DNA of 64,000 nucleotides from Eubacteriales bacterium mix99 (GTDB taxonomy: Bacteria > Bacillota > Clostridia > Caldicoprobacterales > DTU083): contig CP121690.1 of NCBI GenBank assembly GCA_038396605.1, forward strand, positions 900,500-964,499, read 5' to 3'. The position numbers and the translations under genes were made by a program. This document shows positions 5,118 through 59,966 of this stretch, piece by piece (positions within the stretch are counted from its first letter, which is position 1; each line of letters starts with the position of its first letter). The notes under the pieces are model-generated. The model saw nothing but the letters and a program-made list of their open reading frames with translations, did no database searches and was not told the origin of the DNA.

Positions 5118-5567
5118 TCAATGGCTCTCTCCCGCACCCTTCAGCTTATCCAGTGCTTCCTCCAGCGTATGCCAGGAAAGCACAGCACATTTGACCCTTG
5201 CAGGCATGTTGGAAATATTCTTCAGGGCTATGGCGTCCTCCAGCTCTTCCAATTCCTTTTCATCGGTTACGGTTTTCCGGATCATGCCAAGAAACAATTC
5301 CGCCAGATGTTTCGCCTCAGCGGTTGATTTCCCTTCAATCAAATCCGCCATAATGGAAGCAGATGCCTGGGAAATGGCACAGCCGCTCCCCAGAATCGCG
5401 GCATTTTCAATGTTGCCGTCCTTCACCTTCAGTTCCAGACTGATATCATCCCCGCAGCTGGGATTGACTCCCCGCACTTTGACATCGGGATGTTCCAGAG
5501 GGTGCCGGTGCTTTTGGGAACGGCTGTATTCCGTTACGACTTCCGTATAGATATCACCCAACTCCAA
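5118..5567 (-). CDS. sufU: SufU-type iron-sulfur cluster scaffold / zinc-dependent sulfurtransferase
   Basis: 149 residues. SufU accepts sulfur from SufS and feeds the SufBCD scaffold in Gram-positive bacteria. The three expected cysteines are present: NPSCGD near residue 40, GSGCAIS near 63 and VKCAVLSW near 127, with the Asp after the first Cys that completes the zinc site. It begins with TTG, has a GGAGGTGG site, and overlaps the end of sufS by 14 bp, so the two are translationally coupled. Last gene of the suf operon. Confidence 0.95.
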   Translation of the reverse strand: MELGDIYTEVVTEYSRSQKHRHPLEHPDVKVRGVNPSCGDDISLELKVKDGNIENAAILGSGCAISQASASIMADLIEGKSTAEAKHLAELFLGMIRKTVTDEKELEELEDAIALKNISNMPARVKCAVLSWHTLEEALDKLKGAGESH

Positions 5568-6783
5568 CGTTCAGCCACCTCCTGACACTTTTCAGGCTTT
5601 CCGCCAGGCGGTCTATATCCTCTTCCGTGTTGTACAGGTACAGACTGGCCCGGCAGGTAGCCGTTACACCCAGACGGCACAGAAAAGGCTGGGCGCAATG
5701 ATGGCCGGAACGGACAGCAATCCCGTCTGCATTCAGTATCGTTGCAATATCATGAGGATGGGCATCCTCCATTACGAAGGAAACCACCCCGATCCGCTCC
5801 TCCGGATTGTCCGGCCCCAGGACGTGAAGATGCGGTATCGCATGCAGCTGGTCCATCAGGTAGGAGGTTAGATCCCTTTCCCCTGCGCGGACGTTTTCCA
5901 TGCCGGCCTTGTCCAGGTAGTCGATGGCGGCGGAAAGGCCCACTGCTCCTCCCACGTTCTGGGTGCCTCCTTCAAACTTTTCCGGAAGAGGGGCATAGGT
6001 GGAAGCCTGTTCCTCCACATACTCGATCATATCCCCGCCATATAGGAACGGAGGCATTTCGCGGAGCAGTTCTTCCTTTCCATAAAGTACGCCAAATCCC
6101 ATGGGCCCCAGCATTTTATGGGCGGAAAACGCAAAGAAGTCCGCATCCATGGAGGACACGTTTACAGCCATATGGGGAACACTCTGGGTTCCGTCCACGA
6201 CGACCACCGCTCCCACCTGATGCGCCCGTTCTATTATCCGTTCCACCGGATTGATGACTCCGGTCACATTGGACGCCTGCGCCACAGCTACGATTTTGGT
6301 CCGATCATTGATCTTTTCTTCGATTTCCTCCGGGATAATACGGGCTGCTTTGTCCGTATACAGATAAACCAGCTCGGCCTCCCGGGCCTTTGCCACGATC
6401 TGCCACGGCACCAGATTGCTGTGATGCTCGGAAATCGCCAGCACAACCCGGTCGCCGGAATGCAGAACGGACATTCCATAGCTCTGGGCCACCAGGTTCA
6501 GGGACTCGGTGGCACTTTTGGTAAAGATGACTTCATCCGTCTTCTCCGCTCCGATAAAGGAACGGATTCTTTCCCGCGAAGACTCCATGGCGTTGGTGGC
6601 CTTCACGCTCAGGTCGTAAATTCCCCGGTGAGGATTGGCATTGGATTTCTGATAGTACTCCATCACCGCATCCAATACCGACTGAGGCTTCTGCGTCGTG
6701 GCAGCATTGTCGAGATAGGCCAGGCGGCGGCCTTTTTCATCTTTCTCACACAGCAGCGGAAAATCATGCAGGTATTTGTTCAA
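5554..6783 (-). CDS. sufS: Cysteine desulfurase SufS
   Basis: 409-residue PLP enzyme that removes sulfur from L-cysteine and delivers it as persulfide to SufU. Seen: LDNAATTQKP near the N-terminus, HHSNLVPW, the PLP-binding lysine in FSAHKMLGPMG (about residue 222), and the catalytic cysteine in RSGHHCAQPF (about 360). Length matches group II desulfurases. The start is TTG preceded by AAAGGAGG, and it overlaps the sufD stop by 4 bp (TTGA). Fourth gene in a C-B-D-S-U order typical of clostridia. Confidence 0.97.
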   Translation of the reverse strand: MNKYLHDFPLLCEKDEKGRRLAYLDNAATTQKPQSVLDAVMEYYQKSNANPHRGIYDLSVKATNAMESSRERIRSFIGAEKTDEVIFTKSATESLNLVAQSYGMSVLHSGDRVVLAISEHHSNLVPWQIVAKAREAELVYLYTDKAARIIPEEIEEKINDRTKIVAVAQASNVTGVINPVERIIERAHQVGAVVVVDGTQSVPHMAVNVSSMDADFFAFSAHKMLGPMGFGVLYGKEELLREMPPFLYGGDMIEYVEEQASTYAPLPEKFEGGTQNVGGAVGLSAAIDYLDKAGMENVRAGERDLTSYLMDQLHAIPHLHVLGPDNPEERIGVVSFVMEDAHPHDIATILNADGIAVRSGHHCAQPFLCRLGVTATCRASLYLYNTEEDIDRLAESLKSVRRWLNVGVG

Positions 6784-8012
6784 GCCGTTTGGCCTCCTTT
6801 CTCAATGGCTTTTCGGACCTGATCCTTGATCCGGTTCTGAATGGATTCCTCCGGTATCTTCTCCACAACGGAAGAAACAGCAGCCTCTGCCAGCAGTTTT
6901 TTTGCTTCCACTTCACTGAGCCCGCGGCTCATCAGATAAAACAGAATTTTTTCATCCAGCCTGCCGGAAGACAGGGCATGATCCCCTTCCACGTTTTCCT
7001 CTCCGCAGAGCATGACCGGCGCCGACAGATTCCGCACATCGGGACTCAGCATCAGGACGTTCTCTTCCTCACGTCCCCTTGATCCGGCAGCGCCGCTGAT
7101 AAAGTCCAGCGTATCCCGGAATGTTTTCCTGCACCGCTCCAGCAGAACGCCTTTTGCGGTGATGCGGGACAAGGTTTTTTTGCCCCGGTGTTCCACGCGA
7201 TAGGACATGTCCAGCGATCGCTGCCCATCTCCCAGATAAACCGCATCCAGCTCTGCCTCGCTGCCCTCTCCCTTCAGAACGAGATTGCAGCTGGAAAAGG
7301 GATTTTTCGCTCCAATCTCCGCAAGGACGACATCCAGCCGCGCTCCTTCCTCCGCAATGCCGCCGATGGAGTCCGTATGGACCGCCATTTCCCCCAGCAC
7401 CTGCGCCTTCACCAGCTTCACATGGGCGTTCCGATGGGCAAGAATCCGGGTCCGTCCGTAATGATGGACCTTCTGTCCTTCTTCGGAGGTATAGTTTATC
7501 AGAACCGTCACCTGGGAATCTTCCTCTGCCTCGATGACGACATCGTCCACCAGATCCGGATTTTCTCCGGTCAAATGCAGATTTAGAACAATCGGGTCCT
7601 TTTCCGTATATCCTCTGGGGATCCGCAGATAATGCCGCCGGTTCGCATACTGATCCAGGAACGCACCTGCTTCCCTGGGGAGGAAAAATCCCGCAGCGTC
7701 CTCCTTCATGGGAACTTTGTCCGGGCCTTGCTCCTGAATAATCCGCTCCGATGCCGGAATCGCCGTATTCCCCGGAAAAGATCCCGGATCCGATCCGGAC
7801 ACTGTCATCCCGGCGTCATTCACATAGGAACGGCTCCAGGTACGTGTCTGCATCCTCCGGACCTTTTTTTCATGTCTCCCCAGACCCTGATGCTGTCCCA
7901 AACCCTGTTCCAACATACTCTGGTTCGGCATCTTTCCGGTTTCCTGTTTTTCCGTATCCTGCTTCAATGCGCTTTGATCCCGCGTATTATGTTTCCGTGT
8001 ATCCTGCCGCAT
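6780..8012 (-). CDS. sufD: Fe-S assembly scaffold protein SufD
   Basis: About 410 residues; partner of SufB in the SufBCD scaffold. The start is set at the ATG at 8012 because TTAGGAGGG lies just before it, 10 bp after the sufB stop; an upstream in-frame start would overlap sufB. The first 70 residues are unusually polar and Gln/Lys rich (repeated Q-D-T-K and QGLGQHQGLG), after which the normal beta-helix core begins. The C-terminal helical part has the SufB/D-shared LMSRGLSEVEAKKLL. The long polar N-terminus is longer than in most SufD proteins. Confidence 0.93.
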   Translation of the reverse strand: MRQDTRKHNTRDQSALKQDTEKQETGKMPNQSMLEQGLGQHQGLGRHEKKVRRMQTRTWSRSYVNDAGMTVSGSDPGSFPGNTAIPASERIIQEQGPDKVPMKEDAAGFFLPREAGAFLDQYANRRHYLRIPRGYTEKDPIVLNLHLTGENPDLVDDVVIEAEEDSQVTVLINYTSEEGQKVHHYGRTRILAHRNAHVKLVKAQVLGEMAVHTDSIGGIAEEGARLDVVLAEIGAKNPFSSCNLVLKGEGSEAELDAVYLGDGQRSLDMSYRVEHRGKKTLSRITAKGVLLERCRKTFRDTLDFISGAAGSRGREEENVLMLSPDVRNLSAPVMLCGEENVEGDHALSSGRLDEKILFYLMSRGLSEVEAKKLLAEAAVSSVVEKIPEESIQNRIKDQVRKAIEKGGQTA

Positions 8013-8022
8013 ATCATCCCTC

Positions 8023-9513
8023 CTAACCAATGGTTCCTTCCAGTTCAATATTGATCAGCCGGTTCATCTCCACCGCATATTCCAGGGGAAGCTCCCGGGA
8101 AATCGGTTCCACAAATCCCCGGACGATCATGGCTCTGGCCTCCTGCTCCGTGAGACCCCTGGCCATCAGGTAGAACACGGCCTCATCGCTGATGCGCCCG
8201 ACTTTCGCCTCATGCCCGACATCCGACTCATCGGTGCGGATATCCAGTGACGGGATAGTATCCGACCGGGAGTCGCTGTCCATCATCAGGGATTCACAGA
8301 CAGCAGAGGATTTCGACCCCACCGCTTGCGGCAGGATTTCCACGGTACTGCGGTAAACAGCAATTCCTCCGTCCTTGGAAATGGAGCGGGAATGAATTGT
8401 GGAATACGTATTGGGTGCCGCATGCACCACTTTGGTACCGGTATCCAGGTTCTGACCTTTCCCGGAAAAGGAAATGCCGGTAAAGGTGGATCTTGCCCCC
8501 TCCCCTTTCAGAATGCTGGAAGGATACAGCATGGTAACATGGGAACCAAAGGTCCCGGATATCCACTCAATGGTGCCGTTCTTTTCCACAACAGCACGCT
8601 TGGTATTGAGGTTCATCATATTTTTCGACCAGTTCTCAATGGTGGAATACCGCAGAGTGGCCCCTTCCCGCACGTACAACTCCACACAGCCGGCATGCAG
8701 GTTCAGCATATTGTATCCCGGAGCGGAGCAGCCTTCAATAAAGTGAACACTTGCACCTTTTTCCACAACGATCAGCGTATGCTCAAACTGCCCGGCGCCG
8801 GCGGCGTTCAGCCGGAAATAGGACTGAAGCGGGAAATCCAGATGCACCCCTTCGGGCACATAAACAAAGGAACCGCCCGACCATACCGCGCCATGAAGCG
8901 CCACAAATTTATGCTCCTCCGGCGGTACCAGCTTCATGAAAAGCTTTCGGACGATATCCTCGTGTTCCCGCACCGCCGTTTCCATATCGGTATAAATTAC
9001 ACCCTGTTTCGACAGCTCGTCCCGGATATTATGGTAAACCACTTCGGAATCATACTGTGCTCCCACGCCTGCCAGGGATTTCTGCTCCGCCTGCGGAATC
9101 CCCAGACGCTCAAAGGTATCCTTGATGTACCCGGGAACCTGATTCCAGTCACTTTTCATATCCGTATTTGGCCTGACATAGGCGACGATGTCGTCCATAT
9201 GAAGCTCGTCCAGAGACGGTCCCCAGTCCGGCATCGGCAACCGGTTATAAATTTCCAGCGAACGAAGGCGATGCTGCAGCATCCATTCCGGCTCATTTTT
9301 CATTTTTGATATTTCCGTTACAATCTCAGGAGTCAGACCCTTGTCTGTCTTGAAGCTGCTTTGATCCCTATCCCGAAAATCGAAACGTTCCCTGTCGGCT
9401 TCCTCCAGCATTGCCTTTTGTCTTTCCAGCTTTTCCGCTTCCTTTGCTTTTCGGTCTGCCGCCATTCGGTCTGTCGTATTTCCTGTATTTTTTAAATTGC
9501 TTGTTTTTTCCAT
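8023..9513 (-). CDS. sufB: Fe-S assembly scaffold protein SufB
   Basis: About 496 residues. SufB is the main cluster-building subunit of the SufBCD complex. Seen: the beta-helix core with VYVPEGVHLDFPLQSYFRLN, FIEGCSAPGYN, GSKSSAVCESLMMD, the conserved D-E-S-D-V-G-HEA motif, and the C-terminal FYLMARGLTEQEARAMIV. The ATG at 9513 is preferred because GGAAGGG lies before it; another ATG five codons upstream has poor spacing. The first 60 residues are highly charged. Confidence 0.96.
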   Translation of the reverse strand: MEKTSNLKNTGNTTDRMAADRKAKEAEKLERQKAMLEEADRERFDFRDRDQSSFKTDKGLTPEIVTEISKMKNEPEWMLQHRLRSLEIYNRLPMPDWGPSLDELHMDDIVAYVRPNTDMKSDWNQVPGYIKDTFERLGIPQAEQKSLAGVGAQYDSEVVYHNIRDELSKQGVIYTDMETAVREHEDIVRKLFMKLVPPEEHKFVALHGAVWSGGSFVYVPEGVHLDFPLQSYFRLNAAGAGQFEHTLIVVEKGASVHFIEGCSAPGYNMLNLHAGCVELYVREGATLRYSTIENWSKNMMNLNTKRAVVEKNGTIEWISGTFGSHVTMLYPSSILKGEGARSTFTGISFSGKGQNLDTGTKVVHAAPNTYSTIHSRSISKDGGIAVYRSTVEILPQAVGSKSSAVCESLMMDSDSRSDTIPSLDIRTDESDVGHEAKVGRISDEAVFYLMARGLTEQEARAMIVRGFVEPISRELPLEYAVEMNRLINIELEGTIG

Positions 9514-9534
9514 TCTCGTCCCTTCCATCCCTGC

Positions 9535-10275
9535 TTACTCAAGCACCGAAGCATAGCCTTCCCGGTTTATTTTATCGATCACAGAGGCATCCGTTGTCCG
9601 GACCATACGCCCGTTCGCTATGATATGAACATAATCCACGGGGAGATCCTCCAGGATCCTGGTAATATGGGTAATAATAAGGATTGCGTTGTCCTTGTTT
9701 TTATAGTGGTGAATGCTCTCGGAAATCGTCCTTACCGCGTCAATATCCAACCCGGAATCGGTTTCGTCCAGGATAGCCAGCTTCGGGTTCAGAACGGCCA
9801 TCTGGAGAACTTCGTTCTTCTTCTTTTCCCCGCCGGAAAACCCTACATTAAGATAGCGGGTTGCATAGGAAGGATCAATCCCCAGCTCTTCCATCCTGGA
9901 ACGGAGCTCTTTCCGAAAGGGAATCAGCCTGATTTCCTCTCCGGTACAGGCTGCCTTTGCAGAGCGCAGAAAATTCTCAACCGTGATTCCGGGAATTTCC
10001 TCGGGCGCCTGAAAGGAAAGGAAGATCCCTTTTCTGGCCCGGACATCCGGCTTTTCCTCTGTAATGTCCTCTCCTTCAAATAAAATGCTTCCATCCTCCA
10101 CGTGATAGCGCGGATCTCCCATAATGACATTGGCCAGTGTGGATTTTCCCGCGCCGTTGGGGCCCATCAGCACATGTACTTCTCCGGCCTGGATCGAAAG
10201 GTCGATCCCGTCCAATATGCGCTTCCCTCCGGCAGACGCACTAAGATTATGAATACTCAATAAATTCTTTGGCAT
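9535..10275 (-). CDS. sufC: Fe-S assembly ATPase SufC
   Basis: 246-residue ABC-type ATPase that powers the SufBCD scaffold; not a transporter. Seen: Walker A GPNGAGKST, Q-loop SFQAPEEIPG, signature NVGFSGGEKKKNEVLQ (the KKKNE form is SufC-specific), Walker B LAILDETDSGLDIDA, and the H-loop ITH. The ATG at 10275 follows GAAGAGGTG, inside the last codons of the marR gene (19-bp overlap), so the regulator and suf genes form one transcript. Confidence 0.97.
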   Translation of the reverse strand: MPKNLLSIHNLSASAGGKRILDGIDLSIQAGEVHVLMGPNGAGKSTLANVIMGDPRYHVEDGSILFEGEDITEEKPDVRARKGIFLSFQAPEEIPGITVENFLRSAKAACTGEEIRLIPFRKELRSRMEELGIDPSYATRYLNVGFSGGEKKKNEVLQMAVLNPKLAILDETDSGLDIDAVRTISESIHHYKNKDNAILIITHITRILEDLPVDYVHIIANGRMVRTTDASVIDKINREGYASVLE

Positions 10276-10796
10276 TTTTCGCACCTCTTCAATGTTGATT
10301 CCTGAGAATGACCGGCTTGGCCAGCCATTTGGGCAATGGAGCAATTTTCATTCACGGCGGTGTCATTGATAATCAAATCCATCATCCCGATGACTTTTTC
10401 TACGGAGTTCTCATCCAATCCCCGGACATATTCCTCCAGATCGGATCTCAGTTTTCCATAGTGCCCGTCATATCCCCTGCAGGCAGCTTCCCCGGCGTCC
10501 GTCAGTTTATAATAGACTTCCTTTTTGTTCCCGACGATGCGATATGGCTCCAGATATCCCTTTTTATCCAGCTTTTTGGCAAGCTGTGCCACCGCACCGT
10601 TGGTAATCCCCAGATACTGCGACAAGTCGCTGGCTCTGGCCCCTTCGTTATGCTGCACACACTTCAGCAGGCAAATATCGGAATAGGTCAGTTTGTGCGC
10701 CGTTCCATAATTCCTGGAAATTTTTAACTCGCACATCATAATATTCTGCGTCTGATACAGCTTTTCTATTAGACTTCCCCTTTTCTTCCTATCCAT
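10257..10796 (-). CDS. MarR-type winged-helix regulator heading the suf operon, with C-terminal cysteines
   Basis: About 179 residues. Residues 35-110 form a MarR winged helix-turn-helix (DLSQYLGITNGAVAQLAKKLDKKGYLEPYR, wing NKKEVYYKLTDAG). A C-terminal extension carries NENC and, 20 residues later, RCEKCQRIY, so three cysteines are grouped in the tail, with others in the body. It is co-transcribed with sufC (overlapping). I infer a local suf regulator that may sense Fe-S or redox state, analogous in role to SufR or IscR but of another family. The exact start is uncertain among GTG 10805, ATG 10802 and ATG 10796; the last has the best ribosome-site spacing. Confidence 0.85.
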   Translation of the reverse strand: MDRKKRGSLIEKLYQTQNIMMCELKISRNYGTAHKLTYSDICLLKCVQHNEGARASDLSQYLGITNGAVAQLAKKLDKKGYLEPYRIVGNKKEVYYKLTDAGEAACRGYDGHYGKLRSDLEEYVRGLDENSVEKVIGMMDLIINDTAVNENCSIAQMAGQAGHSQESTLKRCEKCQRIY

Positions 10797-10813
10797 ATCC
10801 ATCACCTCAGACT

Positions 10814-10870
10814 ATTTTATAGCAGCTAAACAAAAAAGTCAATATTCTTTAGCAACTAAAAAATATTGAC
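10814..10870 (-). promoter_or_regulatory. suf operon promoter with two MarR-like operators and a 33-bp palindrome
   Basis: Reverse strand: -35 TTGACT (10842-10837), 17-bp spacer, -10 TAAAAT (10819-10814). TTTAGCAACTAAA (10848-10860) lies just upstream of the -35, and the near copy TATAGCAGCTAAA (10818-10830, 11/13 identical) overlaps the -10, exactly 30 bp away. The first is the centre of a longer inverted repeat, 10838-10870, whose 15-bp arms match at 14 positions around CAA. The leader before the regulator's start is very short, about 10-12 nt. Confidence 0.8.
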
Positions 10871-10941
10871 TCTTTAAAAACCCAAAAATTCATCCTGAAT
10901 ATTTATGATGATATTTTACGCTGTTTTTCTGCCAAAGCAGG

Positions 10942-11331
10942 CTAATCCCCGGGATTGGTCTGATACGCGCGCATAAAATCCTGCATCGCCTGGATGGAAT
11001 CGTTGCTGATCACGTGCTCAATGGCACAGGCATCCGTATCCGCTGTTTTATAGTCCAGTTTCAGGATTTCCATAAAGAACTTCCGGATGGTATGATGCTT
11101 ATTGGAAGTATGTTTTGCAAACTCCCTTCCTTTGGGAGTCAGAAATATTTCCCCATATTTTTCATTTGTGATCAGGCCTTTTTCAGAGAGTGTTGCCATG
11201 GCACTGTTGGTACTCGGCCGTGTCACTCCCATCCAGCTGGCAATATCGGATACTCTTGCACCATTGTCCCCGCTCGACAGCTCAAATACCGCTTCCAGAT
11301 AATTCTCCATGGAAAATGTCAGCTTCTCCAT
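10942..11331 (-). CDS. DtxR/MntR-family metal-dependent repressor
   Basis: 129 residues from the ATG at 11331, chosen because AAAGGAGGGAGG precedes it. N-terminal winged helix (ENYLEAVFEL, SDIASWMGVTRPSTNSAM, GEIFLTPKG), then a dimerisation/metal region with HHTIRKFFMEIL and DACAIEHVIS, whose Cys, Glu and His are family metal ligands. It lacks the C-terminal SH3 domain, as in MntR-type proteins. It is a candidate for the protein that reads the AGTTAGATATATCTAACT palindromes at 5.0 and 19.4-20.1 kb, but no copy lies in front of its own gene. Confidence 0.9.
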   Translation of the reverse strand: MEKLTFSMENYLEAVFELSSGDNGARVSDIASWMGVTRPSTNSAMATLSEKGLITNEKYGEIFLTPKGREFAKHTSNKHHTIRKFFMEILKLDYKTADTDACAIEHVISNDSIQAMQDFMRAYQTNPGD

Positions 11332-11566
11332 TGGCGTTCCTCCCTCCTTTTCATAGGGCGCCCCTCTCAGCAATTCACAGGCCTTACTGTATCTCTTTTT
11401 CAAAAATAATTTAATGGGCATCCCGACTATATACACCCGTTTTCATCGATTTCCTTTCTTACATCCTACATCTGCTTGATGTACAATGCAACCTTTTTTT
11501 GAGTAGTTTTGCCCAAAGCGATCCTTCAACCGGATAACGTTACTATGCGGTAACTGTAGGCATAAT

Positions 11567-59652: not shown

Positions 59653-59966
59653 CGGCAAATACCTGGGGGTGACGTTTTGAGCATCAGTGAGCTTCTGCTG
59701 GACGTAATCAGCGAGTTTTATGAAACAGACAACCGGGCAACGACATTCGGTACCGGTACAGAACTTTATCACTCGGAGATCCATATGCTCCAATGTATCG
59801 CAGACCATCCTGCCCTGCACATCTCCGGCCTTGCACGCCTTCTGGAGGTGACGCGCGGAGCGGCATCGCAAACTGCCAAAAGGCTGGAACGAAAAGAAAT
59901 GATTGTGAAGAAAGCCAGCCCGGAGAATGAGAAAATGGTTGTGCTGCGGTTAACCATAAAAGGAAT

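What the first reader, a model, noticed from the sequence alone, without database searches (positions are those of the whole stretch)
10257..10870. MarR-type suf regulator with a C-terminal cysteine tail and a 33-bp palindrome
suf operons are usually controlled by IscR, SufR or Fur. Here a MarR-type gene overlaps sufC and carries NENC plus CEKC in a tail beyond the normal fold, reminiscent of cluster-ligating tails. Its promoter has two 13-bp operator-like sites 30 bp apart, one centred in a 33-bp near-perfect palindrome that includes the -35. This may be an unrecognised Fe-S sensing family.
Basis: partly seen in the sequence, partly recalled or inferred. Interest (0 to 1): 0.7.

Follow-up and report, generated by a model that had tools for sequence, protein, structure and literature searches.

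The report
Cysteine-tailed MarR regulator of suf operon
A DNA-binding regulator gene overlaps the genes that build iron-sulfur clusters, has a conserved binding site of its own and an unusual cysteine-bearing tail, so it may sense iron-sulfur or sulfur status, but that sensing is not shown.

Summary
A MarR-family gene (10257-10796, minus) overlaps sufC by 19 nt and heads an intact sufCBDSU operon. Its promoter has two 13-bp sites 30 bp apart; one lies in the strongest palindrome of the window and abuts the -35. The operator core recurs before MarR-linked genes in other genomes, five times 5-6 nt ahead of the -35, also where the MarR has no tail; so it belongs to the MarR clade, not to the tail. 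The exact core occurs once in the 3.13-Mb genome.

Of 62 MarR homologues aligned, only three have a tail over 26 residues with two or more cysteines (window, MAG UBA4966, genome G062); they are also the only three found beside sufC/smsC, and all three lack the histidine triad kept by 51 of the other 59 (AdcR's zinc ligands). This looks like a changed sensor.

However, the window's CEKC is written by sufC's ribosome-binding site and ATG and proves nothing by itself; independent cases are few (one or two origins). Fe-S sensing is plausible (about 0.4); thiol or sulfane-sulfur sensing and incidental cysteines remain open.

Side finding: DtxR-like regulators with a C-x8-C-x2-C tail lie at or near sufC/smsC in nine other loci.

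The parts
10257..10796 (-). MarR-family regulator gene, 179 aa from ATG 10796 (alternative GTG 10805)
10260..10367 (-). C-terminal tail, residues 144-179, predicted without confident structure
10341..10343 (-). codon of C152, outside the overlap with sufC
10272..10283 (-). CEKC codons (C172-C175); they read through the sufC ribosome-binding site and ATG
10282..10287 (-). probable sufC ribosome-binding site GAGGTG, six bases before the sufC ATG
   Evidence: by eye
10479..10481 (-). codon of C106, Cys in all three suf/sms-linked homologues; Tyr in 32 and Cys in 4 of the other 59
10848..10860 (-). operator site 1, TTTAGTTGCTAAA on the minus strand
10837..10871 (.). 35-bp palindrome around site 1, 15 of 16 arm pairs
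10818..10830 (-). operator site 2, TTTAGCTGCTATA on the minus strand, one mismatch
10837..10842 (-). -35 hexamer TTGACT
10814..10819 (-). -10 hexamer TAAAAT
9535..10275 (-). sufC
8023..9528 (-). sufB (start uncertain)
6780..8048 (-). sufD (start uncertain; just under the NCBIfam cut-off)
5554..6783 (-). sufS
5118..5567 (-). sufU (start uncertain)
10942..11334 (-). DtxR/MntR-like gene upstream, no cysteine tail; orthologue (71%) also beside marR in L012 but divergent

Best explanation
The gene encodes a MarR dimer that controls its own promoter, and so the marR-sufCBDSU operon, by binding TTTAGYTRCTAAA sites next to the -35 and over the spacer and -10. It probably represses when Fe-S supply is sufficient and lets go when clusters are lost or damaged, reading the signal through cysteines of the flexible C-terminal tail (C152, C172, C175), perhaps with C106: a MarR-built analogue of SufR that gave up the histidine metal site of its relatives. 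Shown: gene family, operon, conserved core operator and its place, a single exact operator in the genome, restriction of the cysteine tail to suf/sms-linked members, loss of the histidine triad. Inferred: binding and autoregulation (about 0.85), repression rather than activation. Inferred and weak: that the tail binds an Fe-S cluster (about 0.4). The confidence is for the whole chain.
For: Order and overlap with sufC kept in UBA4966, MarR 67% identical. Core operator before the MarR gene in window, L012, L013, L049 and L196, 5 or 6 nt ahead of a TTGAYW hexamer. Exact core once in 3.13 Mb. Of 62 homologues only window, L012 and L049 have a tail over 26 residues with at least 2 Cys, and only these have SufC/SmsC plus SufB/SmsB in the flanks read (1 in 37820 if all 62 were independent, 1 in 1830 if window and L012 count once). 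H42, H109 and H113 together are in 51 of the other 59 and in none of the three; AdcR uses H42, H108, H112 for zinc (PMC6224198, passages). G062 has CSFLCECDQKGNTC in its tail, outside its overlap. Precedents: SufR Rv1460 needs C203, C216, C244 (PMC6034842, passages); ArnR, a wHTH likened to MarR/ArsR, binds [4Fe-4S] and has three C-terminal Cys (PMC12343034, passages).
Against: CEKC is dual-coded: residues 171-179 keep 8 of 9 codons, against 41% amino-acid identity in 144-170. The last Cys of G062 also falls on the smsC ATG. C152 aligns with a G062 Cys in a three-row alignment but not in the 62-row one, where G062 has Gln. C106 is also Cys in four tail-less homologues. The tail is unstructured in the model. 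At most two independent origins. 2 of 13 family genomes, 1 of 20 of UBA4966's family. None of 49 other sufC and 94 other smsC loci has such a MarR.
Confidence: 0.4

Rival explanations
1. A thiol switch: the cysteines of the tail and body sense reactive sulfur or oxidants by forming disulfides or polysulfides, which releases the protein from DNA and raises suf. No cluster is involved.
For: MarR proteins that sense oxidants or sulfane sulfur through cysteines are known (review PMC11211675, abstract and passages). Seven cysteines in the window protein. sufS and sufU handle persulfide sulfur (general knowledge).
Against: No pair of cysteines placed as in MexR or OhrR was shown. C42 is not kept in L012 (Ser) or L049 (Asp), and C22 and C46 are not kept in L049.
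Confidence: 0.25
2. An ordinary MarR autorepressor whose tail cysteines are incidental: the tail arose by overlap with sufC, CEKC is the reading of its ribosome-binding site and ATG, and the signal is an unrelated small ligand.
For: AGG TGC GAA AAA TGC = GAGGTG, six bases, ATG. An ATG read in that frame gives TGN, that is Cys, Trp or stop. The tail apart from C152 and the overlap is poorly conserved.
Against: Does not explain four tail cysteines outside the overlap in G062, C152, the link of tail with suf/sms in 3 of 62, or the lost histidine triad.
Confidence: 0.23
3. A metal sensor (zinc or ferrous iron) in the manner of AdcR/ZitR, with some ligands replaced by cysteines.
For: Most relatives keep the histidine triad (51 of 59); AdcR and ZitR are among the solved-structure matches of a relative and of the model. 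Position 42 is Cys in the window.
Against: H42, H109 and H113 are all lost in window and L012, and H42 and H113 in G062. NCBIfam's zinc-dependent MarR model: 24.2 bits against a cut-off of 175. FabT, not a zinc sensor (recalled), has His at the aligned places too, so the triad itself does not prove metal.
Confidence: 0.07
4. The palindrome is an intrinsic terminator of the upstream DtxR-like gene, not an operator.
For: Strong RNA hairpin, -19.5 kcal/mol, z -7.5, followed by TTTTTTG in the window.
Against: The stem is poor in G-C and the terminator scan did not list it. In L012 the DtxR-like gene is divergent, yet the arms pair 16 of 16. The core recurs before MarR genes with other neighbours. 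It could still do both in the window.
Confidence: 0.05

Closest known systems
SufR (Synechocystis SufR; Mycobacterium tuberculosis Rv1460)
   Same: Winged-helix regulator as first gene of a suf operon, autoregulation, cysteines in the C-terminal part
   Different: Different winged-helix family; in Rv1460 C203-x12-C216-x27-C244, here C152-x19-C172-x2-C175; no SufR model among the NCBIfam hits at E 0.001; no cluster shown
ArnR (Corynebacterium)
   Same: MarR/ArsR-like wHTH with three C-terminal cysteines and, there, a proven [4Fe-4S] cluster
   Different: Controls narKGHJI and hmp, not suf; has a separate C-terminal sensory domain
AdcR/ZitR zinc-dependent MarR regulators
   Same: Same fold and the same branch of similarity as the window's relatives
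   Different: The three His ligands of zinc site 1 are replaced in the window protein
Cysteine-switch MarR proteins (OhrR, MexR, MgrA, E. coli MarR)
   Same: MarR fold, cysteines as sensors of oxidants or sulfane sulfur
   Different: Their sensing cysteines lie in the body, not in a tail of 36 residues; not suf-linked
IscR and other Rrf2 regulators
   Same: Local control of Fe-S assembly genes
   Different: Different family; Rrf2-like genes were seen, by eye, near sufC in 2 of 49 other loci (L184, L189)

Membership tests
MarR family | MarR-type winged-helix domain | tested here: met
   Pfam HTH_27 39.3 bits (cut-off 22.2) and MarR 30.4 (24.6); Foldseek matches mostly MarR
MarR family | Dimer that binds a palindromic operator, often its own promoter | not testable with these tools
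   Conserved palindromic core at its own promoter is consistent
SufR | Sequence homology to SufR | tested here: inconclusive
   No SufR model among NCBIfam hits at E 0.001; whether the library holds one was not checked; no direct comparison made
SufR | First gene of a suf operon | tested here: met
   also in L012
SufR | [4Fe-4S] cluster on C-terminal cysteines | not testable with these tools
   Cysteines present; spacing differs
IscR/Rrf2 | Rrf2 domain | tested here: not met
   No Rrf2 hit for the protein at E 0.001 in Pfam or NCBIfam
AdcR/ZitR zinc-dependent MarR | NCBIfam NF038251 cut-off | tested here: not met
   24.2 bits against 175
AdcR/ZitR zinc-dependent MarR | Histidine ligands H42, H108, H112 of zinc site 1 | tested here: not met
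   Aligned positions 42, 109, 113 are C, Y, Y in the window and S, Y, Y in L012

The most novel reading that the evidence does not exclude
MarR is a further winged-helix family that was turned into an Fe-S feedback sensor of SUF by dropping its histidine metal site and adding a short disordered cysteine tail. Together with the Cys-tailed DtxR-like regulators beside sufC and smsC, it would show that bacteria repeatedly make Fe-S regulators by adding a small cysteine tail to whatever local winged-helix repressor is at hand.
Probability: 0.38. Interest if true: 0.72.

Novelty: new variant of a known kind. Interest (0 to 1): 0.52.

Why it matters
My searches found no paper on a MarR regulator of suf or on a regulator of smsCB (open-licence papers only). 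A MarR with its own operator and a cysteine tail, with tail-less sisters that share the operator, is a compact test case for how a new sensor is grafted onto an old repressor. It also warns that a CxxC at the end of an overlapping gene can be the imprint of the next gene's ribosome-binding site and start codon.

Tried and rejected
Wider regulon: besides the window site, TTWAGYWRCTWAA matched once in the own genome, 16 nt before the probable start of an ABC sugar-permease gene (L017). Up to two mismatches gave 42 forward and 56 reverse places against 283 and 287 for the backward control. I take these as chance; a weak site at L017 is not excluded.

Relatives in viral contigs: 600 candidate stretches, none confirmed. 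G062's family and order: only G062 is held. A terminator reading of the palindrome is among the rivals.

Rows dropped before the count of 62: L008, L026, L036 (best frame broken or wrong), L206 (same gene as L030), L001, L002, L010, L011, L019, L020, L193, L194 (copies of rows kept), L021 and L192 (same gene as L049), L014-L016 (weak or partial), L223 (fetched later). Only the loci returned were read, not every listed match. In one search, 12 distant rows were left out. Of 53 sufC places (52 genomes), 49 others were read; the own copy, two pieces in G001 and G052 were not. Of 95 genomes with SmsB, the 94 besides G062 were scanned and G062 is L049; at least six of the 94 stretches are cut by a contig end, so an upstream gene could be missed there. 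The regulator beside sufC/smsC was judged by alignment to the window MarR and to a DtxR row, Rrf2 only by eye. My first DtxR pattern had a wrong spacing and found nothing; mended.

Papers: passages of PMC12343034, PMC12192291, PMC10913485, PMC6034842, PMC6224198 and PMC11211675; others only as search listings. PMC12192291 has no occurrence of MarR, DtxR or IscR in its main text.

Full report
What is there. On the minus strand an operon runs marR (10796-10257), sufC, sufB, sufD, sufS, sufU. The MarR frame may start at GTG 10805; ATG 10796 sits six bases after GAGGTG and is more likely (by eye). Seven cysteines: 22, 42, 46, 106, 152, 172, 175. marR and sufC overlap by 19 nt. A DtxR/MntR-like gene lies upstream (10942-11334).

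Operator. A sigma-70-like promoter TTGACT-17-TAAAAT (10 of 12) lies ahead of marR; another candidate of equal score lies further up. Site 1 (10848-10860) sits in a 35-bp palindrome with 15 of 16 arm pairs, the best of that shape in 64 kb; 0 of 2000 shuffles of the intergenic region reach 14. Site 2 is 30 bp away. The core TTTAGYTRCTAAA stands before the MarR genes of UBA4966 (L012), Clostridiaceae bacterium M8S5 (L013), G062 (L049) and G744 (L196), in all five 5 or 6 nt ahead of a TTGAYW hexamer. In L195 (G703) one core lies after the probable -10 of a flavodoxin-like gene that precedes the MarR. L012 has 16 of 16 arm pairs, but L013, L049 and L196 only 10, 11 and 12, so the long palindrome is special to window and L012. 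The second site is exact in L013 and L196 (47 and 46 bp away), has 3 mismatches in L012 at the same 30 bp, and 4 in L049. These loci were picked because the core was seen: of the 28 loci outside the window's genus one had it, and of the 31 loci L193-L223, copies of window and L012 apart, L195 and L196. In the 49 sufC and 94 smsC loci a relaxed match occurs once each (L153, L085), with no MarR beside it.

Regulon. The exact core occurs once in the 3.13-Mb genome, here. A local, self-controlling regulator is the simplest reading.

The tail. The full-length protein was found in the window's genus (2 of 13 family genomes; 100% identical in G001 = UBA4874) and in UBA4966 (67%; 1 of 20 genomes of its family), with the same marR-sufCBDSU order and 58-78% identity of the Suf proteins. 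Profile searches found MarR matches in 41 of 391 class genomes and 37 of 398 phylum genomes. Of 62 homologues aligned, exactly three have more than 26 residues beyond position 143 and at least two cysteines there: window, L012, L049. The same three alone have SufC/SmsC with SufB/SmsB beside them (L025 has another ABC ATPase without SmsB). From the other side, none of 49 other sufC loci and none of 94 other smsC loci has such a MarR.

A lost metal site. H42, H109 and H113 occur together in 51 of the other 59 homologues and in none of the three. In AdcR the aligned H42, H108 and H112 bind zinc (PMC6224198, passages). The window has C, Y, Y; L012 S, Y, Y; G062 D, H, N. FabT has His at the same places, so the triad marks the family rather than proving metal. 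With the tail, its loss suggests a changed sensor.

Why CEKC is weak evidence. AGG TGC GAA AAA TGC is the sufC ribosome-binding site GAGGTG, six bases, ATG. Residues 171-179 keep 8 of 9 codons between window and L012, while 144-170 is 41% identical in amino acids. The last Cys of G062 also comes from the smsC ATG (by eye). What remains: C152 in window and L012; C106 in all three (but also in four tail-less homologues); and four tail cysteines of G062 in CSFLCECDQKGNTC. C152 matches a G062 cysteine in the three-row alignment but not in the 62-row one.

History. In the tree of 62, window and L012 group with tail-less regulators linked to flavodoxin/ferredoxin genes (98/91), G062 elsewhere on a long branch. 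One origin of the tail is not rejected (p-AU 0.286). One gain or two cannot be told apart.

Structure. AlphaFold with four sequences gives the MarR fold (pLDDT 77.1) and no confident tail. Foldseek finds HsmR, MepR, MexR, ZitR, FabT and other MarR proteins first. This neither supports nor refutes cluster binding.

Comparison. If the inference holds it works like SufR, but it is a MarR protein. ArnR is a second precedent for a MarR/ArsR-like wHTH with three C-terminal cysteines and a [4Fe-4S] cluster (PMC12343034, passages). Sulfane-sulfur sensing by MarR proteins is an equally known kind of answer (PMC11211675, abstract and passages).

Side finding. DtxR-like regulators with a C-x8-C-x2-C tail lie directly before sufC in L146, L177, L179, L181, one gene away in L154, and before smsC in L088, L090, L094, L105: 5 of 49 and 4 of 94 loci. 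They come from two families, eight of nine from one (f58), and L177 and L181 look alike. Of 30 DtxR-like loci from a phylum search (best of 184 genomes with matches among 329) none has this tail and none has SmsB in its flanks; five have another Cys-rich end.

Verdict. Observation confirmed. The core operator is real by conservation. A changed, cysteine-based sensor is the best reading; that it holds an Fe-S cluster is plausible, not shown.

Noticed in passing
L146:980-1423, L177:25-519, L179:1133-1588, L181:25-480, L154:33-353, L088:1192-1665, L090:100-669, L094:1407-1874, L105:1455-1946: DtxR/MntR-like regulators with a conserved C-x8-C-x2-C tail at or near sufC (5 of 49 loci) or smsC (4 of 94); a possible second Cys-tailed kind of SUF regulator.
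   Followed up: partly
window 10942-11334 and L012:5144-5548: A DtxR-like gene (71% identical, no Cys tail) sits beside marR-suf in both genomes, in tandem in the window and divergent in L012.
   Followed up: partly
L013:5935-8052, L195:571-2740, L196:1423 onward: Tail-less sister MarR genes with the same operator core, linked to flavodoxin-like or flavodoxin-ferredoxin genes and, in L013 and L195, an MBL-fold-like gene.
   Followed up: partly
L273, L276, L277, L281, L291: Other DtxR-like frames ending in a different Cys-rich tail (C-x2-C), without SmsB in the flanks read.
   Followed up: no
L085:1802-1814: A one-mismatch operator core about 150 bp before smsC in G206, with no MarR beside it.
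   Followed up: no
window about 59740-59964 (+): A second MarR-like frame (32% identical over residues 28-102), with repeated ATTGAATGA-like stretches upstream.
   Followed up: no
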